From the NCBI GenBank assembly GCA_020444065.1, contig JAHLLQ010000005.1, positions 186,001 to 250,000 of the forward strand: DNA of 64,000 bases. Reading direction: 5' to 3'. Under the pieces are notes generated by a model. The model was given only the letters and a program-made list of their open reading frames with translations. It was not told where the DNA came from and ran no database searches. Shown here one piece after another: positions 22,335 through 47,737 of the stretch; positions within the stretch are counted from its first letter, which is position 1; each line of letters starts with the position of its first letter. This DNA is from a bacterium (GTDB lineage: Bacteria > Sumerlaeota > Sumerlaeia > SLMS01 > JAHLLQ01). The translations under genes were made by a program, and so were the position numbers.

Positions 22335-23309
22335 CTACTGGTCCAGGAATCCCAGTTTCCGGAACGGCCAGTAGCGCAGGATGGCCTTGCCGCGCAGGTG
22401 AGAAGTCGGGACCCCACCCCAGTAGCGACTGTCACTGGAGCTCAACTGGTTGTCGCCGAACATGTAGACCTCATCATCGCCGGCCTGGATCACGGTGGGT
22501 TCCTGATTAGGCGAGGGCAGAAACGTCGATGTCGATCGAGGAAAGTGATGCAGCCGCGGGAACGGTTCCTCGGTGACAGGCTCGCCGTTTATGAGTACCG
22601 GGCGGGTATTGAGGACCTTCTCCATCCCACCGTATTCGGGCGGGGAGATCCGGCCGGACACATTTGGCGGGTGCATATCGTATTGATCGACCGGCTGGAG
22701 CGTAATCTCCTCACCGGGCAGACCGACCGCGCGTTTGATGTAAACCGGCTTGTCCGGATCAAACGGGTGACCGCTTTCTGGGCGGTCCGGAACTTTGAAG
22801 ACCACGATGTCGCCACGATCCGGCGGCGAGAACCAGTATGCGAACTTGTTGACCAGGATCATATCGCTGCGGCCCTTGCCGGGGAGATTGGGCTGTCGGA
22901 GTCGATCTCTCAGGCCGTAGTCCGGTGCCTCGAGCACCAGTTCCGTGTCGAATTCGCCCTCCGCGTTCCGCAGGTGAACCTGAACCATGCTGGGCTGGGT
23001 TGGGTGATTCAGGACGATGATATCCTGATCGCCGTCCTGATCCCAATCAAGCTCGCCGACCAGGTGTGCATCGTCGCCGATCAGCGCCGGCGTCATGGAG
23101 CCCGTCGGGATCATGAAGAGCTCAAAGACATACGTCCGGATGAACATGGCCAGCAGAAAGGCGAAGAACAGCGCATCGGCCCAGCCGCGCAGGTCGCGCA
23201 TCACGGCGTGCATCATGCCGCCGGGCGTCTTCTTGGCGCTCTCCGTGCGACGTTCGCGCACGCGCTCCGGAGTCGTTGTCTGCTGGGTCGTTTTCTTTTT
23301 CTTCGCCAT
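22335..23309 (-). CDS. lepB: Signal peptidase I with an FG-GAP-like insertion
   Basis: The membrane serine protease removes signal peptides. A Lys/Arg-rich N-terminal tail is followed by a transmembrane segment (about residues 46-66). The Ser box FMIPTGSMTPALIGDD has the nucleophile at about residue 71. The chain then runs to ILVNKFAYWFSPPDRGDIVVFK (about 151-172, quoted here as a family block), and VYIKRAVGLPGE has the catalytic Lys at about 192. Near the C-terminus is MFGDNQLSSSDSRYWGGV. In other signal peptidases the Ser box runs straight into the ILV-x-KF strand. Here about 68 residues (22866-23069) are inserted and read like an FG-GAP/VCBS repeat (DWDQDGDQDIIVLN, then VHLRNAEGEF). The ATG at 23309 is chosen because GAGG precedes it; a GTG at 23348 is possible. 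Confidence 0.92.
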   Translation of the reverse strand: MAKKKKTTQQTTTPERVRERRTESAKKTPGGMMHAVMRDLRGWADALFFAFLLAMFIRTYVFELFMIPTGSMTPALIGDDAHLVGELDWDQDGDQDIIVLNHPTQPSMVQVHLRNAEGEFDTELVLEAPDYGLRDRLRQPNLPGKGRSDMILVNKFAYWFSPPDRGDIVVFKVPDRPESGHPFDPDKPVYIKRAVGLPGEEITLQPVDQYDMHPPNVSGRISPPEYGGMEKVLNTRPVLINGEPVTEEPFPRLHHFPRSTSTFLPSPNQEPTVIQAGDDEVYMFGDNQLSSSDSRYWGGVPTSHLRGKAILRYWPFRKLGFLDQ

Positions 23310-23408
23310 TGAGCCTCGTCCCGAGCCTGAGTCCGTTGTGGTTGTCACAGAAGAGGACTCAGGCGCAAGGGAAGTGGTTGGTTCCGCATTCGCCCTGTGA
23401 ACTGCGGG

Positions 23409-35452: not shown

Positions 35453-35635
35453 TATTGTCGCAAAGTAATTTTGCGGCATTCTTTGCGAAATCGTTTCCGA
35501 TCAGATAAAACACTTCAGAAGAAACCGCCCCACATTTGGAGCGGTCTGGCAAATCCAGCTTGGCTTTCGGCCTACAGCATGGGACTTGTCTCCTCATCAT
35601 CCCCCGTTTTGTAGGGTATTTTGAGGAGACCCCTT

Positions 35636-38600
35636 ATGAGGAACCGAGCTTTGAAGCGCCTTCCGATACTTGGCGCGCTCTTCCTTTTTGGCGCGTTGGT
35701 GTCGATGGCCAGCGCCCAAAACACGAGGCCCAAGGTGAGCTGGCACTGGCACATGCACCAGCCCATCTATTGGAACGACCAGTTGGAGAGTGGGACGGAC
35801 CGTTATGAATACGCCTGGGATTCGATCCAGGCCAAGAACGGCGGCCGTGTCCATCCAACGGACAACCTGAATGAGATCTTCGGCAAGGACGATCGCGTTG
35901 CGGCCTATCAGTACCGCATGCGGAACGCGTTGGCGAACATCTCCGGCCATACAAACTCCGGTGCGGCGGTCAGCTACTCCGGCGCGTTGATGGAAAACAT
36001 CAACAGCCTCGGCGACGCGGGCCAGTTTGGGTACGGCAGCAACTGGAACTCGTGGATGAACGAGGCCAACGAGTGGGACACGAGCGGCGGCAAGCCGCGC
36101 ATGGACATCGTGAACTTCTCGTTCCACCACGCACTGGTCGGGCTCCATAACCCCGAGACGGTTTACATGGAGATCAAGTTGCACCAGGAGAAGGTGAAAG
36201 AGGAGTTCGGGACGGATGCTCTGTCCCGCGGCTACTTCCCGACGGAAATGGCATTCTCCACGCGCCTGATCCCGGTGCTCGATCAATTGGGCATCGAGTG
36301 GTCGATCGTCTCCGGTTCGCACATCGCGCGCGCCTGCCCGGACTTCCCGATTGCTGTGGGAAGCGGCGGCGAGAACTGCGATCTGCCGAACGCGGCCGAT
36401 CAGATCAACCCGAACGGCAACAACTTCATCCGCGTCTCCATCGATCGCGGATGTTCGCCGTCGAATGCCAACCCGCTTTCTTACCAGCCCGCCTACGTCA
36501 AGTACGTCGACCCGGAAACGGGCGCCGAGACGAAGATTATCGCCGTTCCGGCGGACCAGGCTTACGGTTGGAAGGACGGCTACAGTTGCCTCGGGGCGGG
36601 ATACCTGGGGGATCTTGAGGCGCTGAACGATCCGTCGCAGCCCTCGCTGTCGCTGCTTGTGCACGACGGCGACAACGCGTTTGGCGGTGGCTACAGCTAC
36701 TACAATGAATGCGTTCCGAACATGGCAAACGGCGCAGCCGGCCAAGGCAACGAGGTTACCTCGATCGAGCAGTACCTGGCCGAATTCCCGCCCGATACGA
36801 ATAACGTCATCCATGTCGAGGACGGCGGTTGGGTGAACGCCGATTCGGACTTCGGTTCGCCGACCTATATTAACTGGAACTATCCGCTTCTCGATTCCAC
36901 CGGCCAGATCGATCCGGTCAACGGTTGGCACGAGAAGGCACGCGACATGGCGATCTTCACGGCCGCCCTGAACCGCGTGCTGACCGCTCAGCAGATCAGC
37001 GGTCACTCGCCGGACTACGCGAAGATCCTGCACCCCGACGGATCGACGCACGAGGTCGATCGCGCATGGCACTACTACCTCGGGTCGCTCGACTCCGGGA
37101 ATGTCTACTACGGCCCGGCACAGGACCTTGAAGTGAAGGCCACCCTCGGCTGCAACGAAGCCGTTGAGCACGCCGATCCCATCATCGGCGACGCGTCCTC
37201 GGATACAACGCCACCGACGATCTGGCTGCCCCAGCGTCATCCGTACAACCCCGGCAGCCGCAACTTTGGCGTGCAGTACGGCTACAAAGAGTACTTCGAC
37301 GACGGCGACTTCCATATCTGGACGTTCATCTCCGACGCCAGCGGCCCGGTCGACGCCGTGCTGAAGTACCGCGTCGACGTCGACGGCTCGAACCCGTTGT
37401 CTTCGAACCAGAACGAAACTTACGCTGGTGGCTCCGAAGTCGGCACCTGGGTTGAATTGCCCATGAACCGCCGCGAGTTCCCGAAGGGCAACATCTACGG
37501 CAATCCGAACATTGATTTCTTCGAACTGCCGACGCACATCGCGGATCACTACTCGGTGGAAGTTACCGGGCTGCGTGAGAAGCTGATCGACTACTACGTT
37601 GAAGCGACGGACGCGAAGGGCATTGTTTCGCGCTCGCCGATCCAGCACGTTTACATTGGCGATGGCAGCGGAGCCACTGGGGCCCGCGTCGTGGTCGCGC
37701 CGAAGCCGCCCGTTCGCGGCCAGCAGGTCACGGTCACTTACGATCAGACCGAAGGCCCGCTCAGTGGCGCTTCGCAAATCTACATTCACCTTGGCAAGAA
37801 CGCGTGGGACGCGACCGTTGCACCCGATCCCGCCATGACCGATGCCGGCAACGGCACCTGGACCTACACCTACACCGTCGACCTCGACGCGCTTCAGGTC
37901 GATTACGTCTTCAACGACGGTGCAGGTAACTGGGACAACAACAGCGGCAGCGACTGGCACTTCACGACGACCGACGACAACGGCTTCACGCCGACTCCGT
38001 CGCCGACTCCTTCGCCCACCCCGACGGTTTCCCCAACGCCTTCGCCGACTCCGATCGTCGGCCAGGTTGTCACCGATCCGGCTCCGCCGGTCGCGGGCCA
38101 GTTGGTCACGGTCACCTACGATGCAAGCGCCGGCCCGCTGGCCAGCGCGACCCTCGTCTACATTCACAAGGGCATCAACGCCTGGAGCACCACGGATCCG
38201 ACCGACACCTTGATGTCGAAGGATCTCGCGACGGGCTTCTGGGAAATCACATACACTGTTCCCTCCACCGCCACTGAATTGAACATGGTCTTCAACGATG
38301 GCGATACGATTTGGGACAACAACGGCGGCAGCGATTGGACCATCGCCGTGACGGGCGGCCCGACGCCGACTCCGTCCCTGACGCCTTCGCCCACGCCGAC
38401 CACGACGCCGTCGCCGACGGCTTCGCCGACGCCGGGCTACACGCCCGATCCGACGTTGGACATCGCTGGCATCCCGGGCCAGGCGCCCATGATCATCCAG
38501 TACTTCGGCGCCACCTGGGAGTCGATTGCACGCCGCATGACCGACGCGTTCACGATTGGCTACGGTGGCATCTGGGTTCCGCCTCCGACACGCGGCGGCT

Positions 38601-41600
38601 CCGGCTTCAGCGTTGGCTACGACCTGTTCGACCGCTTCGACTACGGTTCGATGCTGGGCGAGTGGACGCGTTACGGCCACCTGGATACGATGAGTGCGAT
38701 GCTCGATAATGGCGATCGCGCCGACATCGATATCATCCCCGACACGATCCTTAATCACAACTCCTTCGGCACGAAAGCCGACACGACGTTCGCCGATCTC
38801 GGCGGCTATCCCGGATTCGCTTTTGAAGTAAACGGCGAAAACGGCAACGGCTACGACGCCGACGGCGACTTCCACCCATCCGGCCAGTCCGGCGAGTGGG
38901 AGATGTACCTGGCGGGTCTGATCGACATCGCCCAGGAGAAGAATCACCAATTCATCCGTCAGCCCGTCGATGCGGGCGACTCGCGCAACATTCCGGGCGC
39001 CGGCAAGTTGCTGAAGCCCATTACCGAGAACAACCGCCGCTTCTATCCGGACCTCGATCCGGCACCGGGCGACGTGTTGACGCCTTCCGGCTTCAACCTG
39101 ACGAACCCGCTGGGCGGCGACCCGGTTGAAGAGAACGCAACCGGCCTGCTGCTGCGCTTTGTGCGTTATGCAAACGAAGTCCTTGGCTTCGACGGCTACC
39201 GCATCGACGCCACGAAGCACATGCCCGATTGGTTCTTCAACTTCTACGACGATGCCGTCTTTGGTAACGGCAAGGTCCTGCTCGACGGATCTCGCGAAAC
39301 GCCGTTCAGCTTCAACGAGATCTTCGATGGCGATTACGGCAAGCTGAACCTGTATCGCCGTCGCGACGGCTACGGCAACCGCGACAACCTTGACTTCCCG
39401 TTCTTCTTCAAGGCCACCGACGTTCTGAATCAGCATGGCCTTGGCGATCTTCGCGAACTGGTTTGGGGAACCTACGACAATACCGACGGCAGCGCAATCG
39501 ACGGCTCCGCCGGCGTCCGGTTCATTTCCAGCCATGACAAGGACGGCGCCGGCTGGTCAAACATCGGCCACGCCTTCATCATTCTGCGCAACGGCTACAG
39601 CATCGTTTATCACAACGCTCTGGAGTTCGGTCCGCAGGAACCCGACAACGAAGGTCACCCGTTCCCGAAGGAAGCCAACGCTCGCGGCGACGCCATGGGC
39701 GACTACAGCAGCATCATCACGACGCTCGTGAATATCCGCCGCATCTATGGCCGCGGCGTGATGTACGAGCGCTGGATCGATGCCGATTACCTCATCTACG
39801 AACACGACGCCCGCCTGCTGTGGGGCATCTGCGACAGCGAAAACACCGGCTACGTCGCGCAGACCGTGACGACGAACTTCTCGGCCGGCACGATCCTGCA
39901 CGAGCTCACCGGCAACCATTCCATGTACGCCGACATTCCGGAAAGTATCACCGTCGGCTTCGGCGGCGAAGTGAACCTGCGCATCCCGACCAACGTCGAT
40001 CAGTTCGGCTACGTCGCTTACGCGCCGGCTACTCCGGAGATGACGAGCGTGTCGCTCTCCAATGCGACCGACGTTCCGCCCGACGATGACGGCGCCGATC
40101 CCACCTATGTGGACAAGGCACGTCATCGCAACTACTCGATCTGGTCGACGACGGCTGCGAGCTCGCTGCTCGAGCTGCAGACCGACGGCACCGAAGACAT
40201 CGCGTTGGTGAAGGTGGATGCCGGCGTCGATATCAATGGCAGCGGCGGCGTCGACTACACCAGCGGAGGCCTTGCCGGCTTCGAGCGCTTCAGCTTCGAA
40301 GACGTCGGCGCCCAGGGCGGTTCCGGTCTTTATAACGTGACGCTCGATTGGACGCAGCTCGGTGAAGGTTACCACTTCATCGAAGTGATCGCGGTCAACT
40401 GGGGCGCCGGCGAACATGCGCCGATCTGGTCCAGCCATCGCGAAGCCGTCTACGTCAACAATACGCGCCCGGTCGCGACGATTCGCTACCCGGCCGAAAA
40501 TCAGGTCATCTCCGGCAGCGAAGTCGAAGTTTGGATCGCTACCGACAATACTGAAAACAACGCGCTCGTGAACGTCGCCAGCGCATTCGACGCGAACCGG
40601 CCGACGGATCAGTTCGCTCAGATGAACGACCCGGGTCCGGGCGAGTGGCGCCTGACGGTGCCGGTGACCTCCACCGACCGCGTGATCACCGTTCGCCTGT
40701 ATGAAGAGACGGGCGATTCCATCGACTACCACATCAATTTCCTGCAGAGCGGCGATCCCACGCCGACTCCGACGGATACGCCGACACCGACTCCGACGCC
40801 GGATCCGAATGGTGTGACCGTGGATCCGAATCCGCCGGTTGCCGGTTCCGATGTCCTGATCACGTATAACCCGACGGGTGGCCCACTTGCCTCCGCGTCT
40901 GCCGTCTACATCCACGTTGGCATCAACGACTGGGCTGAAGTGGCAGATCCGGACGAGGCAATGACGTCTTCCGGCGGCAACTGGACCTACACTTACTCCG
41001 TGCCGGCTCACGCCGAGCAGATCGACATCGTCTTCAACGATGGCGCAGGCACGTGGGATAACAACAACGACTCCGATTGGCACTTCGCGACCACTGGTTC
41101 CGTGACGCCGACGGTGACTCCGTCCCCGACGCCGTGCGACACTGTCGCCTACGGTGGCGATCGCGTTGCCGTCGATCCGTCGACCCCGGTTGCGAACCAG
41201 ATCGTGACCGTCTACTACGACAAGGCCTCCGGGCCGCTGTCCGGTGCCGGCCAGATCTTCCTGCACAAGGGAATCAACGGTTGGGCAGACGTGGATGCAG
41301 TCGACGTCGAGATGTTCGATGATGGCTGCGGAAACTGGACGGTTTCCTACACGGTTCCGTCGACAGCACAGCAGGTCGACTACGCCCTCAACGACGGCGT
41401 AGGTAACTGGGACAGCAACGGCGGTGCGGATTGGCACTTCGCCACATCCGGCTTTGAAACGCCGACGCCTACTCCGACCCCGATCCCGGGTCGCGCAGCC
41501 ATCAGCCCGGATCCCGCCTCCGCGGGCCAGCCGGTGACGGTGCTGTACGATCAGGCTGGCGGACCGCTGGCCGGTGCATCCGCCATCTACATCCATAAGG

Positions 41601-44600
41601 GCATCAACAACTGGGGCACCGTCGATGCGACCGACACGGCAATGACGAAGGACGCCGCGACGGGCTTCTGGAAGCTGACCTACACCGTTCCGGCCGACGC
41701 GACCGAACTGAACATGGTCTTCAATGACGGCGCAGGAACGTGGGACAACAACGACTCCGCGAACTGGACCTTCACCGTTACCTCCGGCCCGACGCCGACT
41801 CCGACGCCGACGCCGATCCCCGGCCGCGTCGCAGTCGACCCGAACCCACCGGTGACGAACCAGTCTGTGACGGTGTTCTACGACAAGGCCGGCGGACCGC
41901 TGGCTGGTGCTGCCGAAATCTGGCTGCACAAGGGCATCGACGGCTGGGCGGCGGTGGATTCGCCGGACGTCCAGATGACGCTCAACGCAAGCACCGGCTT
42001 CTACGAGTTCACCTACACGGTGCCTGACGGTGCGACGCAGCTCGACTTCGTCTTCTGGGATGGTCAGTCGACGTGGGACAACAACGACAGCGCCGACTGG
42101 AGCTTCTCGACGAACTCCGGCCCGACGCCGACACCGTCCGACACGCCGACGCCGACACCGACGACGACGGCTACCGAAACTCCAACCGAGACACCGACGG
42201 CAACGCCGACCCCGACGCCCACCGATCGCGCAATCACGATTGGCCAGGGCCCGATGCTCGGCACGACCGCCGGCCAGACCTACTACGAAGAGTTCCAGGA
42301 CTGGGCGACGGACGACTGCCGTGCGCTTGACCCGTACAACGATCGTGTTTCGATCGACAGTGGATCCGATAATGCTCGCGACATCGTCGCCTTCTACACG
42401 TTCGACGATCCTGGCGCCGGTGCCTTCTACATGCGCGCCGACTTCCTCGACCTCTACGAGCAAGCCGAGAACAGCCAGCTTGACCTGTACGTGCTGCTGG
42501 ACTTCACGTCCGGTGGCGCAACGGGCTTCCCGGATGGTCTTGGTGGTTCGACTGGTCAGTGGGATCTCGCTGTTGCGGTTTACAGCGCAGCCTACTGGAA
42601 CATCTACGACACCACGCTGACATCGCTCAGCAGTGCCAGTTCCAACCCGGGTCTGTTCGCCGGCGCTTACTTCCGCGCGGACCTCGACTCGGTCGAGTTC
42701 GGCATCGATCGTTCGCTGCTCACTGACCGCGGCTGGGACGGCTCGTCGCCAATCGGCGTCGAGGTCTGCACCGCGCAGGACATGAACGCGACCATCGCCG
42801 ACCGTCTGCCCGACAGCGGTCAGACGGCGACCGACTCGCACTGCCCGACGGCCAAGTATGCCTTCATTCTGCACGGCAACCAGGCCATCAGCGACTCCGA
42901 GTATATCCAGCAACTCGTCTACAACAATGTTGTAACGACTCCGAACGGCAACCCGACCGGTTATCACCGTGCACTCGATACGGCGCGTATCTTCAACGTG
43001 CCGCCGAATATCCACATCTCTGCAACGCTCGTTGCTTCGTTGATGTGGGCGGACAAGCCCGGCACCACCGATCCCGCCGACGGTCCGAACTTCGTCGACT
43101 ACCTGTCCGACTTTGTGGATGGATACGATGGAAACGGCGAAGGCGAGATCGTCTGGGGCGTGTTCAGCGAACACATCATGCCCTTCTGGGAAGGCGTGGT
43201 GAACCAGGACTCGATCGACCGCAACGAGCAGTACCTGATGGACGTCCTTGGTCTGCCCGCGCCGGATGCGAATTCGACGTTCTGGATTCCGGAACGCGTC
43301 GTCCGCGGCGCCACGTTCGCCGATCTTGTCGCGACGGGTTACAACTACACCGTTCTCGACCAGATCAATCACCTGCGGCACTGGTTCGGTGAGAATGGCC
43401 AGGCACACAAGGTCCACCGCATCAATGGCGTGAACGCGTTCATGATCAACGATGAGCCGGATCGTTTCAAGTTCGCCAACACCGATGACGGCTTGTGGTT
43501 CGATACGCGCGAGCACCTGATCGACATGGCCCGCGCCACGGACCAGGAACAGCTCACGCTCGTCTTCGACGACTGGGAGGCCTATGCCGGCCGCTCCTTC
43601 ACGAGCTTCAACGTTGGTACGGATAACCCGGACAACTTCAACACCAACATCCGTTGGCTGGCCAACCACCAGTGGGTCCAGGTCGTCTCGCTCGAGGAAG
43701 TCGCTTCCTGGGGCTGGACGCCGGTTGACCACGGCACCGATACGACGCTGCCGTTCCAGACCTACGACTGGCTGGATCACGCCACCGAGCACAGCTACGA
43801 AAACTGGTACCTCGGTTCGAGCATCGAAGAGGACTTCGACGACTTCGCGCCTCCGATCCGCAAGGACCTGAGCCAGTGGATGACCAAGCCCTTCGGCGGT
43901 CTGTCCACTTACGTTCCGACTTCCGGTTCGGCCACGAAGGGCCCGGGCACGATCGCTCAGGATGTCTACGACGCAACGTTCGGTTCGCCGACCAATGCGC
44001 TTGGCAACCTGGCGCGCCTGGCCTACTCGACGGCCATCTTCGAAACCGCCTGGCACGACGAGGATAACTCGGCCCGTTGCCCGGACGGCTCCTTCGATTG
44101 CTACGACGACGATACATACGATGCGATCGCCAACTTCGCCCGCCAGTTGCAGTTCCTCAACCTGCGCCGCAGCGGCTTCATCGCTGCCGCCGCCGATTGG
44201 GCTGCGACAGGAAACAGCGGAGTGACTAGCGCCGTTGCGGTCGACCTCGACCAGGACGGCGAGAACGAGTACGTGATCAAGAACGATAACGTGTTCGCGG
44301 TCTTCGAGAACGATGGCGGTCGCCTGATCACTGCGTTTGCGCGCGATGCCGGTTCCGGCAACGCCGTGTCGGTGATCGGCAACCTGCTTGGCTTCCCCGA
44401 TGACGACGATGAAACCGAAGCGTCGGCAAACGGCGGCACACGTACTTCCGGCTTGTCAGACTGGTGGGCGTCCGGTGTCGAAGCCGGCTACGTCAACGAC
44501 GTCTATACGGCCAGCGTGCTGAGCAACGGCGTGCAACTCACTTCCGCCGACGGCAAGATCAGCAAGACGATCACGCTGGGCGATTCGAGCAGCACGCTGG

Positions 44601-47600
44601 AAGTCAGCTACGCGCTGACCGGTGGCGCGACGCGTCTGTACGTTCGCAACGGCCTTGCGCCGGATATCGCGAATCTGTTGGAGACGGGCCAGTCGGCTCT
44701 GACTTTGACGGATGCTGGCGGTGTTGCGACCCTGACAAACACGGCAACGAACGCGAGCGTCTCGCTTGGCTACGCAGACGGTTCGCACACGGCAAACTAC
44801 AACTCGGGCGCCGGCGACGGCACCGCGAACTCGCCGCGCAACCAGGCCATGCTTCACATGGCGGAACTGTACGGCGAAGGCAACTTCACATTCGGCATCA
44901 CGCTGACGGCCGGTTCGACAGGCCCGACGCCCACGCCGACTCCATCCCCGACGCCTTCGGCCACGCCGACGCCGTCCGATACGCCGACTCCGTCTCCGAC
45001 CCCGACGGCTACGCCGAACCCGGATGCACCGATCGTCTCGATCATCGATCCGGCGGATGGCGCGTACGTCAGTGGCAACTTCACGGTTGAAGCGCTCGCG
45101 AGCGACACCGACGGCACGGTCAGCAAGGTCGAGTTCTACGTCGACGGCAACAAGGTTGGCGAGGACACGACTCCGAACGCACGCCGCGGCAGCAAGTCCG
45201 CCGCGCGCGGCACGGGAACGATGAAGACCATTACCATCGATGGCGTGAACACCGGCAGCGAGTGGACCAGCTCCGAGCTGATTGCCACCGATGCTGCCTT
45301 CGATCACGCCAACGTTGTCGGCGCCTGGTCGACGCACGAGCCGCAGTTCGACTACACTGAACTGTACGCTGCGTGGGATGCGAACAACCTGTACGTCGGT
45401 ATCCAGATCGTCGACGTGATCGACGTTGAAGATCCGGCCAACGCGGGTTCGTCCGCCGGCACGAAGCCCTTCCAGATGAATCTACCACAGTTTATCGGCA
45501 TCGACGTCACCTCCGGCGGTTACGGAGTGGACACGGTGAACGGCGACATGTGGGGCAAGGGCCACGGCTTCGGCGGTTCGAACGAACTCGACTACGAGGT
45601 CTACTTCGCTTCGAACTTCTTCCAGGGTCCGTTTGTTTGCCCGTACAATGCGGGCTGGGATCCGGACAACGACGCCACGGGCCCGACGGGCAACGGCGTC
45701 TATCCGAACGAGCACGCAGGCCTTGACGGCGCTTCGGCGAACCATTGGGCCGGCGGCCCGATCACTGGCCCGGGAGGCAAGAACTACCTGACCTCCGGCC
45801 ACGATACGAACCGCGACTCGTTCTTCGAAGTTGCCATTCCGCTCGAACTGATTGGCAGCCCGGACCTGAGCACGCAGTCCATCGGCCTGTTCGTCAGCCA
45901 TGGCGATGGCCCGCTGATGTCCGGCGTCGATTCGCTGCCGGACGATCCGGCCACGGTCGATACGCCTGGCGTGACGGCTTCCAACTCGCCGAACGAGTGG
46001 GAAGACTACGACACCTATACCGAGCCCTTCGCGGTCGTTGGTGCCGGCGGAACGGCTACGCCGACTCCGTCTCCGACGCCGATCACGGGCGACAGCTACT
46101 CGATCACGATTGATGCCGGCACGCTCAGCGATGGCTCACACAGCCTCGAGGCGCGCGCCATCGACAACGATCTGCTCGAGGGCAGCGACACCATCACCAT
46201 CAACATCGGCGCCACGCCGACCCCGACCGAAACCCCGACTCCCACCCCGACGCCGACGGACCGCGTTGTTGTCTCGCCGTATCCGCCGGTTGCCGGCCAG
46301 ACCGTTACAGTGACCTACGATGCCAGTGCGGGCCCGATCACCGGTGCCGCCGCAGTGAATATCTACTGGGCCATCAATAACTGGGATGCCGGCTCGATCA
46401 CCGAAGAAGCCATGACGAACGCCGGAGGCGAGATCTGGACGAAGGATCTGTCTCTGCCGGCGAACGCCACGCAGCTCGACATGGTCTTCAACGATGGCGC
46501 GGGCAACTGGGATAACAACAGTGGCAACGATTGGCACTTCACCGTGACGACGGCGACGGATACCCCGACGCCTACGCCTACGCCGACCGACACCCCAACG
46601 GCGACGCCGACGGATACACCTACTGCGACGCCATCGGATACGCCAACTCCGACCCCGACTCCAGGACCGGACGCGGAGATCTACACGACCAACGTGATTG
46701 GCAATCCGTACGCGGCGAGCAGCTCGTTCACCGTCGATATCGCGGTGCGCAACAACACGATCGCGCCGGTCGCTTCCTACACGATGCTCGTGACCTATGA
46801 CGGCGACTCGGCTTCGCTGGTCAGCGTCAGCGACGTCGACCTCGGTGGCGATCCTCCGACTCTCGGCACCGTCTCCGGCAGCGGCACCAGCACTTCTCGC
46901 CTGGTCAACGCTCTCGGAAATGGATCGAGCACGCAGTACGAGTTGACGGTCTGCCGTTTGACCTTCAACACGACGGCCAGCCCGAACGGCTCCCACAGCG
47001 TGACGATCGCCGCCGACGGCCTGAACGAACCGCTGGTCGATCCGAGTGGTAACCCCATCTCGGCGACCTTCAACAGCAGCGAGACCGATCCGCTGTCCTC
47101 GACTCCGACGCCGACTCCGACTCCGTCCCCCACGCCGACCCCGATCGCAAACGGTGCGACCATCGTTCCGTTGCCGGCGGTTCCGGGCAACAGTGTGACG
47201 GTGATCTACGACGCGTCGCAGGGACCGATCTCTGCAGCCAGCGACGTCTACATCCACAAGGGCATCAACGCCTGGACCGAAGTTGATGCATCCGATCACC
47301 TCATGATCCAGGACGGCTTCACCGGCTACTTCACGTACACCTACACGGTGCCCGCCAACGCGGCGCAGCTTGATATGGTGTTCAATGACGGTGCTGGCAA
47401 CTGGGACAACAACAGCGGCAACGATTGGCACTTCTTGACGACGTTGAACGACCAGGATTCGGACGGCGATGGATTCTCCGACGCAGTCGAAGACTCCTAC
47501 GGATCCGATAAGGGCGATCCGAACAGCCGTCCGCTCTTCGGCGACTACAACGGCGACGGCGTCGTCAACATGACCGATGCGATGTTGTTGAGTCGTGCAA

Positions 47601-47737
47601 CGACCGGCGGCGCACTGTTGCCCTACGACCCGATGCTCGACATCAACCTCGACGGCGTTGTCGACAAGTCCGATGCGACCCTGCTCTACTACTGGAGCAT
47701 TGGATCCAGCACGGCGCCGATGATCCCAATGCCGTAA
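35636..47737 (+). CDS. Giant secreted multidomain amylolytic protein (GH57, GH13, CBM25, cohesin-like, dockerin)
   Basis: A signal peptide (MRNRALKRLP..., cleavage SMASA-QN at about residue 27) and 4033 residues in one frame. Domains by approximate residue: GH57-like 28-680 (HWHMHQP; Glu204 in YFPTEMAF); CBM25 682-779 and 807-905; GH13 935-1469 (Asp1191, Glu1228, Asp1301); beta/Ig-like 1470-1710; four CBM25 1726-2160; beta domain 2198-2400; second GH57-like 2404-3094 (Glu2553 in FWIPERV, Asp2645 region); Ig-like first half 3129-3182; CBM9-like 3195-3471; Ig-like second half 3486-3526; CBM25 3542-3638; cohesin-like 3680-3820; CBM25 3838-3936; TSP3 and dockerin 3939-4033. Pro-Thr linkers separate the modules. 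The product should bind and degrade starch or glycogen outside the cell. ATG at 35636 has GAGGAG seven bases upstream; a TTG at 35621 is possible. Confidence 0.93.
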   Translation: MRNRALKRLPILGALFLFGALVSMASAQNTRPKVSWHWHMHQPIYWNDQLESGTDRYEYAWDSIQAKNGGRVHPTDNLNEIFGKDDRVAAYQYRMRNALANISGHTNSGAAVSYSGALMENINSLGDAGQFGYGSNWNSWMNEANEWDTSGGKPRMDIVNFSFHHALVGLHNPETVYMEIKLHQEKVKEEFGTDALSRGYFPTEMAFSTRLIPVLDQLGIEWSIVSGSHIARACPDFPIAVGSGGENCDLPNAADQINPNGNNFIRVSIDRGCSPSNANPLSYQPAYVKYVDPETGAETKIIAVPADQAYGWKDGYSCLGAGYLGDLEALNDPSQPSLSLLVHDGDNAFGGGYSYYNECVPNMANGAAGQGNEVTSIEQYLAEFPPDTNNVIHVEDGGWVNADSDFGSPTYINWNYPLLDSTGQIDPVNGWHEKARDMAIFTAALNRVLTAQQISGHSPDYAKILHPDGSTHEVDRAWHYYLGSLDSGNVYYGPAQDLEVKATLGCNEAVEHADPIIGDASSDTTPPTIWLPQRHPYNPGSRNFGVQYGYKEYFDDGDFHIWTFISDASGPVDAVLKYRVDVDGSNPLSSNQNETYAGGSEVGTWVELPMNRREFPKGNIYGNPNIDFFELPTHIADHYSVEVTGLREKLIDYYVEATDAKGIVSRSPIQHVYIGDGSGATGARVVVAPKPPVRGQQVTVTYDQTEGPLSGASQIYIHLGKNAWDATVAPDPAMTDAGNGTWTYTYTVDLDALQVDYVFNDGAGNWDNNSGSDWHFTTTDDNGFTPTPSPTPSPTPTVSPTPSPTPIVGQVVTDPAPPVAGQLVTVTYDASAGPLASATLVYIHKGINAWSTTDPTDTLMSKDLATGFWEITYTVPSTATELNMVFNDGDTIWDNNGGSDWTIAVTGGPTPTPSLTPSPTPTTTPSPTASPTPGYTPDPTLDIAGIPGQAPMIIQYFGATWESIARRMTDAFTIGYGGIWVPPPTRGGSGFSVGYDLFDRFDYGSMLGEWTRYGHLDTMSAMLDNGDRADIDIIPDTILNHNSFGTKADTTFADLGGYPGFAFEVNGENGNGYDADGDFHPSGQSGEWEMYLAGLIDIAQEKNHQFIRQPVDAGDSRNIPGAGKLLKPITENNRRFYPDLDPAPGDVLTPSGFNLTNPLGGDPVEENATGLLLRFVRYANEVLGFDGYRIDATKHMPDWFFNFYDDAVFGNGKVLLDGSRETPFSFNEIFDGDYGKLNLYRRRDGYGNRDNLDFPFFFKATDVLNQHGLGDLRELVWGTYDNTDGSAIDGSAGVRFISSHDKDGAGWSNIGHAFIILRNGYSIVYHNALEFGPQEPDNEGHPFPKEANARGDAMGDYSSIITTLVNIRRIYGRGVMYERWIDADYLIYEHDARLLWGICDSENTGYVAQTVTTNFSAGTILHELTGNHSMYADIPESITVGFGGEVNLRIPTNVDQFGYVAYAPATPEMTSVSLSNATDVPPDDDGADPTYVDKARHRNYSIWSTTAASSLLELQTDGTEDIALVKVDAGVDINGSGGVDYTSGGLAGFERFSFEDVGAQGGSGLYNVTLDWTQLGEGYHFIEVIAVNWGAGEHAPIWSSHREAVYVNNTRPVATIRYPAENQVISGSEVEVWIATDNTENNALVNVASAFDANRPTDQFAQMNDPGPGEWRLTVPVTSTDRVITVRLYEETGDSIDYHINFLQSGDPTPTPTDTPTPTPTPDPNGVTVDPNPPVAGSDVLITYNPTGGPLASASAVYIHVGINDWAEVADPDEAMTSSGGNWTYTYSVPAHAEQIDIVFNDGAGTWDNNNDSDWHFATTGSVTPTVTPSPTPCDTVAYGGDRVAVDPSTPVANQIVTVYYDKASGPLSGAGQIFLHKGINGWADVDAVDVEMFDDGCGNWTVSYTVPSTAQQVDYALNDGVGNWDSNGGADWHFATSGFETPTPTPTPIPGRAAISPDPASAGQPVTVLYDQAGGPLAGASAIYIHKGINNWGTVDATDTAMTKDAATGFWKLTYTVPADATELNMVFNDGAGTWDNNDSANWTFTVTSGPTPTPTPTPIPGRVAVDPNPPVTNQSVTVFYDKAGGPLAGAAEIWLHKGIDGWAAVDSPDVQMTLNASTGFYEFTYTVPDGATQLDFVFWDGQSTWDNNDSADWSFSTNSGPTPTPSDTPTPTPTTTATETPTETPTATPTPTPTDRAITIGQGPMLGTTAGQTYYEEFQDWATDDCRALDPYNDRVSIDSGSDNARDIVAFYTFDDPGAGAFYMRADFLDLYEQAENSQLDLYVLLDFTSGGATGFPDGLGGSTGQWDLAVAVYSAAYWNIYDTTLTSLSSASSNPGLFAGAYFRADLDSVEFGIDRSLLTDRGWDGSSPIGVEVCTAQDMNATIADRLPDSGQTATDSHCPTAKYAFILHGNQAISDSEYIQQLVYNNVVTTPNGNPTGYHRALDTARIFNVPPNIHISATLVASLMWADKPGTTDPADGPNFVDYLSDFVDGYDGNGEGEIVWGVFSEHIMPFWEGVVNQDSIDRNEQYLMDVLGLPAPDANSTFWIPERVVRGATFADLVATGYNYTVLDQINHLRHWFGENGQAHKVHRINGVNAFMINDEPDRFKFANTDDGLWFDTREHLIDMARATDQEQLTLVFDDWEAYAGRSFTSFNVGTDNPDNFNTNIRWLANHQWVQVVSLEEVASWGWTPVDHGTDTTLPFQTYDWLDHATEHSYENWYLGSSIEEDFDDFAPPIRKDLSQWMTKPFGGLSTYVPTSGSATKGPGTIAQDVYDATFGSPTNALGNLARLAYSTAIFETAWHDEDNSARCPDGSFDCYDDDTYDAIANFARQLQFLNLRRSGFIAAAADWAATGNSGVTSAVAVDLDQDGENEYVIKNDNVFAVFENDGGRLITAFARDAGSGNAVSVIGNLLGFPDDDDETEASANGGTRTSGLSDWWASGVEAGYVNDVYTASVLSNGVQLTSADGKISKTITLGDSSSTLEVSYALTGGATRLYVRNGLAPDIANLLETGQSALTLTDAGGVATLTNTATNASVSLGYADGSHTANYNSGAGDGTANSPRNQAMLHMAELYGEGNFTFGITLTAGSTGPTPTPTPSPTPSATPTPSDTPTPSPTPTATPNPDAPIVSIIDPADGAYVSGNFTVEALASDTDGTVSKVEFYVDGNKVGEDTTPNARRGSKSAARGTGTMKTITIDGVNTGSEWTSSELIATDAAFDHANVVGAWSTHEPQFDYTELYAAWDANNLYVGIQIVDVIDVEDPANAGSSAGTKPFQMNLPQFIGIDVTSGGYGVDTVNGDMWGKGHGFGGSNELDYEVYFASNFFQGPFVCPYNAGWDPDNDATGPTGNGVYPNEHAGLDGASANHWAGGPITGPGGKNYLTSGHDTNRDSFFEVAIPLELIGSPDLSTQSIGLFVSHGDGPLMSGVDSLPDDPATVDTPGVTASNSPNEWEDYDTYTEPFAVVGAGGTATPTPSPTPITGDSYSITIDAGTLSDGSHSLEARAIDNDLLEGSDTITINIGATPTPTETPTPTPTPTDRVVVSPYPPVAGQTVTVTYDASAGPITGAAAVNIYWAINNWDAGSITEEAMTNAGGEIWTKDLSLPANATQLDMVFNDGAGNWDNNSGNDWHFTVTTATDTPTPTPTPTDTPTATPTDTPTATPSDTPTPTPTPGPDAEIYTTNVIGNPYAASSSFTVDIAVRNNTIAPVASYTMLVTYDGDSASLVSVSDVDLGGDPPTLGTVSGSGTSTSRLVNALGNGSSTQYELTVCRLTFNTTASPNGSHSVTIAADGLNEPLVDPSGNPISATFNSSETDPLSSTPTPTPTPSPTPTPIANGATIVPLPAVPGNSVTVIYDASQGPISAASDVYIHKGINAWTEVDASDHLMIQDGFTGYFTYTYTVPANAAQLDMVFNDGAGNWDNNSGNDWHFLTTLNDQDSDGDGFSDAVEDSYGSDKGDPNSRPLFGDYNGDGVVNMTDAMLLSRATTGGALLPYDPMLDINLDGVVDKSDATLLYYWSIGSSTAPMIPMP
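35717..37677 (+). other. First GH57-like domain of the giant protein
   Basis: The domain opens with SWHWHMHQPIYW, the His-rich first motif of GH57. YFPTEMAF (Glu204) fits the catalytic nucleophile position and LLVHDGDNAFGG the later acidic motif. GH57 members are alpha-amylases, amylopullulanases or branching enzymes; the exact specificity is not clear. Confidence 0.8.
37680..38350 (+). repeat. CBM25-type modules 1 and 2
   Basis: Two copies of a starch-binding module of about 95 residues. Each opens with a P(K/A)PPV(R/A)GQ(Q/L)VTVTYD pattern, has YIHxGxNAW in the middle and closes with VFNDG...WDNNxGxDW. A Pro-Thr linker lies between them (about 37987-38055). Confidence 0.85.
38440..40040 (+). 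other. GH13 catalytic domain of the giant protein
   Basis: The GH13 triad is visible as GFDGYRIDATKH (Asp1191), FSFNEIFDGD (Glu1228) and FISSHDKDG (Asp1301), with the usual spacing. DTILNH fits region I. This is an endo-type alpha-amylase by homology. Confidence 0.88.
40811..42115 (+). repeat. CBM25-type modules 3 to 6
   Basis: Four tandem copies, each preceded by a short Pro-Thr linker, all with the V-x-P-x-x-P start, YIHxGIN or LHKGIxGW middle and VF-x-D-G...WDNN-type end. Copy 4 has DSNGGADW in place of WDNN. Confidence 0.85.
42120..42232 (+). repeat. Pro-Thr linker, tandem CCGACNCCGACN DNA repeat
   Basis: A low-complexity run of Thr, Pro, Glu and Ala codons between CBM25 module 6 and the domain before the second GH57. 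Similar linkers are at 38360-38433, 44928-45018, 46558-46667 and 47099-47149. Confidence 0.8.
42847..44915 (+). other. Second GH57-like domain of the giant protein
   Basis: The domain starts with KYAFILHGNQ and holds WGVFSEHIMPFW, FWIPERVV (Glu2553) and VFDDWEAYAGRSF (Asp2645-2646). The C-terminal part has a beta-rich region (VAVDLDQDGENEYVIKNDN) like the DUF1925/1926 part of GH57 amylases. It is distant from the first GH57 domain. Confidence 0.72.
45022..46210 (+). other. CBM9-like module inside a split Ig-like domain
   Basis: The first Ig half (PIVSIIDPADGAYVSGNFTV, then VEFYVDGNKVGEDTTP) breaks off at 45180. A CBM9-like module (TITIDGVNTGSEWTSSELIA, YAAWDANNLYVGIQIV) and a Pro-Thr linker follow. 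At 46090 the sequence resumes with YSITIDAGTLSDGSHSLEAR and DTITINIG, which is the usual second half of this Ig-like fold. Confidence 0.7.
46258..46545 (+). repeat. CBM25-type module 7
   Basis: DRVVVSPYPPVAGQTVTVTYD opens the copy (first 20 residues of the pattern) and VFNDGAGNWDNNSGNDWHF closes it. The middle has NIYWAINNW in place of YIHKGIN. Confidence 0.85.
46672..47090 (+). other. Cohesin-like domain of the giant protein
   Basis: About 140 residues with the cohesin pattern: FTVDIAVRNNTIAPVASYT, LVTYDGDSASLVSVS, a hydrophobic strand pattern through CRLTFNTTASPNGSHSVTI and a final GLNEPLVDPSGN. It matches cohesin I better than other Ig-like folds I know, but profile searching is needed to decide. 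Confidence 0.55.
47146..47440 (+). repeat. CBM25-type module 8
   Basis: The last starch-binding copy, with VPLPAVPGNSVTVIYD at the start, YIHKGINAWTEVD in the middle and VFNDGAGNWDNNSGNDWHF at the end. Confidence 0.85.
47450..47737 (+). other. TSP3 motif and dockerin at the C-terminus of the giant protein
   Basis: DSDGDGFSDAVEDSYGSD is a TSP3-like calcium loop. GDYNGDGVVNMTDAMLLSRA and DINLDGVVDKSDATLLYYW are two good dockerin-type loops with Asp/Asn at the metal positions. The tail ends in IPMP and matches the tail of the protein at 2-832 in order and spacing. Confidence 0.85.

What the first reader, a model, noticed from the sequence alone, without database searches (positions are those of the whole stretch)
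22866..23069. FG-GAP/VCBS-like segment inserted in signal peptidase I
In most signal peptidases the Ser box runs straight into the strand before the Lys region. Here about 68 residues lie between GDD and ILVNKF, including DWDQDGDQDIIVLN and VHLRNAEGEF, close to FG-GAP repeats. The insertion sits beside the active site on the outer face and might guide substrate choice.
Basis: partly seen in the sequence, partly recalled or inferred. Interest (0 to 1): 0.7.

Follow-up and report, generated by a model that had tools for sequence, protein, structure and literature searches.

The report
Propeller-blade insert in signal peptidase
In a little-known bacterial phylum (Candidatus Sumerlaeota), the enzyme that cuts signal peptides off secreted proteins carries, right beside its active site, a small extra domain resembling one blade of the propeller domains of integrins and FG-GAP proteins; it is real and shared by the whole phylum, but what it does is untested.

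Summary
The gene at 22335-23309 (minus) is signal peptidase I with its Ser/Lys site intact. A 71-residue insert (22860-23072) separates the Ser box from box C, where most signal peptidases run straight on. The host belongs to Candidatus Sumerlaeota. Every main lepB found in that phylum carries the insert (38 of 40 genomes, 15 families, both classes); the nearest relatives outside lack it. On a tree of the core alone the insert bearers form one clade, so it was probably gained once.

The insert is FG-GAP/VCBS-like. Its profile finds FG-GAP propellers in the PDB (CRTAC1 2.7e-7, integrin alphaIIb 1e-6) and matches the host's own FG-GAP repeats over 40 columns (score 36.5; best of 200 shuffles 12.3; dockerin control 15.5, calcium loop only). 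Pfam scores stay below the gathering cut-off. AlphaFold gives a confident four-strand blade. The calcium loop is lost in several lineages while the strands remain.

By homology its ends abut the S1 and S3 subsites. Substrate guidance is plausible but untested; partner docking and a neutral extension remain open. Another lineage carries a zinc-ribbon-like insert at the same turn, so the site is a permissive hot spot.

The parts
22335..23309 (-). lepB, signal peptidase I, 324 aa from the ATG at 23309 (337 aa from the GTG at 23348)
   Evidence: TIGR02227 3.4e-34, Pfam S26 1.1e-33, PDB E. coli LepB; fold match to E. coli LepB
23127..23219 (-). N-terminal helix (model residues 31-61), the presumed single membrane anchor
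   Evidence: AlphaFold secondary structure; membrane role inferred from the LepB family
23088..23111 (-). Ser box IPTGSMTP with nucleophile Ser84
   Evidence: alignment with E. coli LepB; invariant in A2
22860..23072 (-). 71-residue FG-GAP/VCBS-like blade insert (residues 93-163)
23022..23048 (-). DWDQDGDQD, calcium-loop consensus DxDxDGxxD (residues 101-109), between strands 1 and 2 of the blade
   Evidence: sequence; full pattern in 23 of 37 inserts; position in the model
22842..22859 (-). ILVNKF, start of box C, where the core resumes
22710..22742 (-). Lys box YIKRAVGLPGE with general base Lys205
22416..22457 (-). GDNQLSSSDSRYWG box of signal peptidase I

Best explanation
It is a working-type signal peptidase I of Candidatus Sumerlaeota with a phylum-specific accessory subdomain. 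Shown by computation: one FG-GAP/VCBS-type blade (strand, DxDxDGxxD loop, three more strands) plus a short helix lies between the Ser box and box C; it is present in every main lepB found in the phylum, most simply gained once, and constrained as protein. Inferred: it lies outside the cytoplasm with the catalytic domain and is stiffened by calcium in the lineages that keep the loop. Its ends join the core between the residues that correspond to Leu95 (S1) and Ile101 (S3) of E. coli LepB. Most likely it is a rigid, non-catalytic ledge on the substrate-binding side that positions the enzyme relative to preprotein, translocon or a partner protein. Calcium cannot be essential in general, because the loop is lost in several families while the strands remain. 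Which partner or substrate effect it has is not known.
For: Signal peptidase I with all catalytic boxes. Insert in all 38 genomes with a main lepB, both classes; absent from the insert-less relatives read. Insert bearers form one clade on the core tree, UFBoot 86. FG-GAP identity: 16 of 30 members hit FG-GAP_3; hhalign to host FG-GAP repeats 36.5 against at most 12.3 in 200 shuffles; signal outside the loop above all shuffles, 13.0 against 12.1; dockerin control 15.5 over the loop only; PDB profile hits CRTAC1 and integrin alphaIIb first. Four-strand blade at pLDDT 94-97. dN/dS of the insert 0.02-0.17 where it could be estimated. S1 Leu95 and S3 Ile101 from PMC2259416.
Against: No member reaches the Pfam gathering score. 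The loop-less inserts alone match FG-GAP only weakly, 14.9. Foldseek with the isolated blade is not significant. No coordinates could be measured, so contact with the cleft is inferred from sequence position only. Nothing tests function. Unrelated inserts at the same turn elsewhere show that the site tolerates additions, which favours a neutral role.
Confidence: 0.6

Rival explanations
1. The insert is a substrate-selection element: it borders the S1/S3 subsites and changes which preproteins are cut, while a short insert-less paralogue handles others.
For: Insertion point between the S1 and S3 residues of E. coli LepB; the host also has a short signal-peptidase-like paralogue without the insert (G000:C1, locus L145).
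Against: No substrate data; the short paralogue was not tested for function; the insert sequence varies widely across the phylum.
Confidence: 0.25
2. The insert is a near-neutral addition at a permissive turn, kept by descent without a particular role.
For: Unrelated inserts at the same turn in G174 and G172; calcium loop lost repeatedly; lengths vary.
Against: Never lost in 38 genomes with a main lepB; low dN/dS where estimable; confident fold.
Confidence: 0.3
3. The FG-GAP likeness is convergence on a generic DxDxDG calcium loop between two strands, not common descent.
For: Most of the score comes from the loop (masked score 13.0); loop-less members match weakly.
Against: With the loop kept and the rest shuffled, at most 25.6 against 36.5; the masked match is in the right register; dockerin, with a similar loop, gives 15.5 over nine residues; Pfam lists FG-GAP but no EF-hand or dockerin; PDB hits are led by FG-GAP propellers.
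Confidence: 0.15
4. Assembly chimera of lepB with an FG-GAP gene.
For: The host genome holds many FG-GAP repeats (150 scored matches).
Against: Same insert at the same place in independent assemblies of 15 families.
Confidence: 0.01

Closest known systems
Bacterial signal peptidase I (LepB; TIGR02227, peptidase family S26)
   Same: Ser box, box C, Lys box, GDN/SDSR box; fold of the catalytic core
   Different: 71-residue blade between the Ser box and box C; E. coli LepB has none there. Domain II of E. coli LepB is another insertion, after the Lys box (general knowledge).
FG-GAP / VCBS repeats (PF13517, PF01839): integrin alpha propellers, CRTAC1
   Same: Strand, DxDxDGxxD loop, strands B-C-D; profile match over 40 columns; four strands in the model
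   Different: A single blade inside an enzyme, not a set of repeats closing a propeller; below Pfam's gathering score; loop lost in several lineages
Zinc-ribbon-like insert in the signal peptidase of G174 (probably Planctomycetota)
   Same: Insert of similar size at the same turn: GRHKETTCTQCG...CPNCG...DRILVNKY
   Different: Cysteine-pair sequence, no FG-GAP likeness.

Membership tests
Signal peptidase I (TIGR02227 / S26) | Score above the family cut-off | tested here: met
   118.1 bits against 47; 117 against 22.9
Signal peptidase I (TIGR02227 / S26) | Ser-Lys dyad and GDN/SDSR boxes | tested here: met
   Ser84, Lys205, GDNQLSSSDSR; equivalent columns invariant in 65 sequences
Signal peptidase I (TIGR02227 / S26) | Cleaves signal peptides | not testable with these tools
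   needs an enzyme assay
FG-GAP / VCBS repeat | Pfam gathering score (PF13517, PF01839) | tested here: not met
   17.2-20.1 bits against 26.9; a relative's insert 23.7
FG-GAP / VCBS repeat | Profile similarity beyond chance and beyond the calcium loop | tested here: met
   36.5 against at most 12.3 (shuffles) and 15.5 (dockerin); PDB hits CRTAC1 and integrin alphaIIb
FG-GAP / VCBS repeat | DxDxDGxxD loop between the first two strands of a four-strand blade | tested here: met
   in the window's sequence and model; full loop in 23 of 37 inserts
FG-GAP / VCBS repeat | Several repeats closing a beta-propeller | tested here: not met
   one matched stretch, one blade
FG-GAP / VCBS repeat | Solved-structure match of the isolated blade | tested here: inconclusive
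   no Foldseek hit at E below 0.001
FG-GAP / VCBS repeat | Binds calcium | not testable with these tools
   needs a binding assay

The most novel reading that the evidence does not exclude
The blade is a docking module that brings signal peptidase to particular clients or partners, for instance by pairing its edge strands with the many secreted FG-GAP propeller proteins of these bacteria or with a translocon component: a client-recruiting signal peptidase that defines a phylum.
Probability: 0.1. Interest if true: 0.8.

Novelty: new variant of a known kind. Interest (0 to 1): 0.5.

Why it matters
Signal peptidase I is widespread and usually essential, and solved structures cover few lineages. 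A phylum-wide blade next to the active site, and unrelated inserts at the same turn in other lineages, suggest that this turn is a hot spot where bacteria modify the enzyme. No paper in the searched library describes it, and its role can be tested by deleting the insert from one recombinant enzyme. It also gives a simple sequence marker for the phylum.

Tried and rejected
Chance or a generic calcium loop: rejected by shuffles, loop masking and a dockerin control. Assembly error: rejected by independent genomes. Single-sequence Pfam: suggestive only. NCBIfam on the insert: no family. PHROGs: one family of unknown function, matched mostly over the catalytic part. Foldseek with the isolated blade: nothing significant; the model is small and only 78.6 pLDDT. 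A first tree with fewer outgroups put two insert-less L069 sequences inside the insert-bearing clade under one rooting; with more insert-less sisters and IQ-TREE the insert bearers are a pure clade. G001 and G025 yielded no insert-bearing lepB, only a short paralogue (G001) or weak matches (G025); I read this as gaps in those assemblies, which is not shown.

Full report
What is there. The minus-strand ORF 22335-23348 encodes a 337-residue signal peptidase I (likely start ATG at 23309, 324 aa). It passes TIGR02227 and Pfam S26 well above cut-off, and E. coli LepB is its best relative in the PDB by sequence and by predicted fold. Ser84 (IPTGSM), Lys205 (YIKRAVGLPGE) and the GDNQLSSSDSR box are intact. 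Between GD and ILVNKF lie 71 residues, window 22860-23072. In E. coli the same stretch reads GDFILV with nothing between; in an Omnitrophota relative it reads GDLILVNKF.

Distribution. Public record titles place the relatives in Candidatus Sumerlaeota, formerly BRC1. Forty genomes of the phylum are held, in 15 families. A main lepB was found in 38, and all carry the insert, including G039, the one genome outside the host's class, where it is longer and degenerate. In G018 one copy is cut by a contig end and another has a broken frame after the insert. G001 and G025 have no main lepB in their assemblies. Some genomes have two insert-bearing copies, side by side or on different contigs. The insert-less relatives read have 47-60 residues between the Ser box and the Lys box where the phylum has 108-135. 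On a tree of 72 core sequences with the insert columns removed, the 38 insert-bearing sequences form a clade without outsiders (ultrafast bootstrap 86). The next grouping adds insert-less sequences labelled Hinthialibacteria, Omnitrophota (L065, L069) and an unnamed bacterium (bootstrap 62). One gain at the base of the phylum is the simplest reading.

Identity of the insert. Pfam FG-GAP_3 and FG-GAP match 16 and 9 of 30 members, best 3.6e-4, with the window's own score below the gathering cut-off; no EF-hand or dockerin family appears among the seven families listed. A profile of 34 inserts (A3) against 12 FG-GAP repeats from the host genome (A4) gives 40 aligned columns, E 1.9e-7, score 36.5. 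Controls: 200 column shuffles reach at most 12.3. Keeping the loop and shuffling the rest reaches at most 25.6. Masking the loop leaves 13.0 in the right register, just above the best of 200 shuffles, 12.1. Host dockerins align over the nine loop residues only, 15.5. The same profile searched against all PDB sequences returns CRTAC1 (2.7e-7) and integrin alphaIIb (1e-6) first, with other integrin alpha chains and ITFG2 among the weaker hits. The nine inserts without the loop pattern, taken alone, match only weakly, 14.9; their relation rests on alignment with the others.

Structure. AlphaFold with 65 sequences gives mean pLDDT 90.2. The insert has block means of 94-97, with strands at model residues 84-87, 96-100, 108-114 and 120-127 and a helix at 131-137 (add 13 for ORF numbering). 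The DWDQDGDQD loop lies between strands 1 and 2, as in an FG-GAP blade. The insert folded alone gives the same strands at lower confidence, 78.6. Foldseek with that small model finds nothing significant; an integrin alphaIIb chain stands at rank 18 with E 3.2 and is not used as evidence.

Position. In E. coli LepB the S1 subsite includes Leu95 and the S3 subsite Ile101 (PMC2259416). By the alignment the insertion point falls between these residues. The catalytic domain is extracytoplasmic in the LepB family (general knowledge), so the insert should be too, where calcium is available. How the blade sits relative to the cleft was not measured.

Constraint and variation. Where it could be estimated for pairs of related genomes, dN/dS is 0.02-0.17 for the insert (four pairs) and 0.02-0.09 for the core (six pairs); several dS values are saturated. 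The full loop pattern is present in 23 of 37 inserts; the sequences of families f6 and f11, among others, lack it. Calcium therefore cannot be essential to the insert in general.

Mechanism. Best supported is a rigid accessory ledge beside the substrate-binding side, not catalytic. Whether it selects substrates, docks a partner or is neutral is undecided. Two other genomes sampled carry unrelated inserts at the same turn: zinc-ribbon-like in G174 (two copies) and an unassigned 130-residue-scale insert in G172. That makes the site permissive and weakens any single functional story. About 150 genomes outside the phylum were searched with TIGR02227. The listed matches are mostly continuous over the model. 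Twenty-two genomes with split or weak matches were fetched, and no FG-GAP-like insert was recognised among the proteins read. The listing was truncated, so this is a sample and not a census.

Literature. No paper in the searched library links signal peptidase I with Sumerlaeota or describes an FG-GAP insert in it (the few co-mentions are incidental by title and abstract and were not read in full). The phylum paper PMC8092238 does not mention FG-GAP. The library lacks most subscription journals.

Noticed in passing
G139, locus L189 (418-aa frame): A signal peptidase I from another phylum with a PDZ domain (PDZ_6, 3.5e-8, above cut-off) between box C and the Lys box.
   Followed up: partly
G152, locus L179 (253-aa frame): A signal peptidase I with a rubredoxin-like cysteine insert (PF00301 1.1e-6, above cut-off) just before the Lys box.
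   Followed up: partly
G174, loci L197 and L203: Two neighbouring long signal peptidases (560 and 621 aa frames) with a zinc-ribbon-like insert at the same turn as the window's blade, and a further large insertion after the Lys box.
   Followed up: partly
G172, locus L181 (411-aa frame): A large insert with no Pfam match at the same turn, between the Ser box and box C.
   Followed up: partly
L022, L147 with L012, and G020/G026 contigs: Two insert-bearing lepB copies per genome, in tandem in G012 and close together in G031; their division of labour is unknown.
   Followed up: no
G000:C1:947987-948445 (locus L145): A second, short signal-peptidase-I-like gene (205-aa frame) in the host genome without any insert; similar short paralogues occur in many Sumerlaeota genomes.
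   Followed up: no
G000, many contigs: The host genome holds at least 150 FG-GAP_3 matches over cut-off (367 candidates, 150 scored) and 18 dockerin_1 matches, a secretome rich in calcium-loop repeat proteins.
   Followed up: no
window 35621-47737 (+): A 4038-aa open frame that overlaps the place of a dockerin match near its 3' end (G000:C5:233540-233686, about window 47540-47686); probably a giant surface protein, with long open frames on the other strand too.
   Followed up: no
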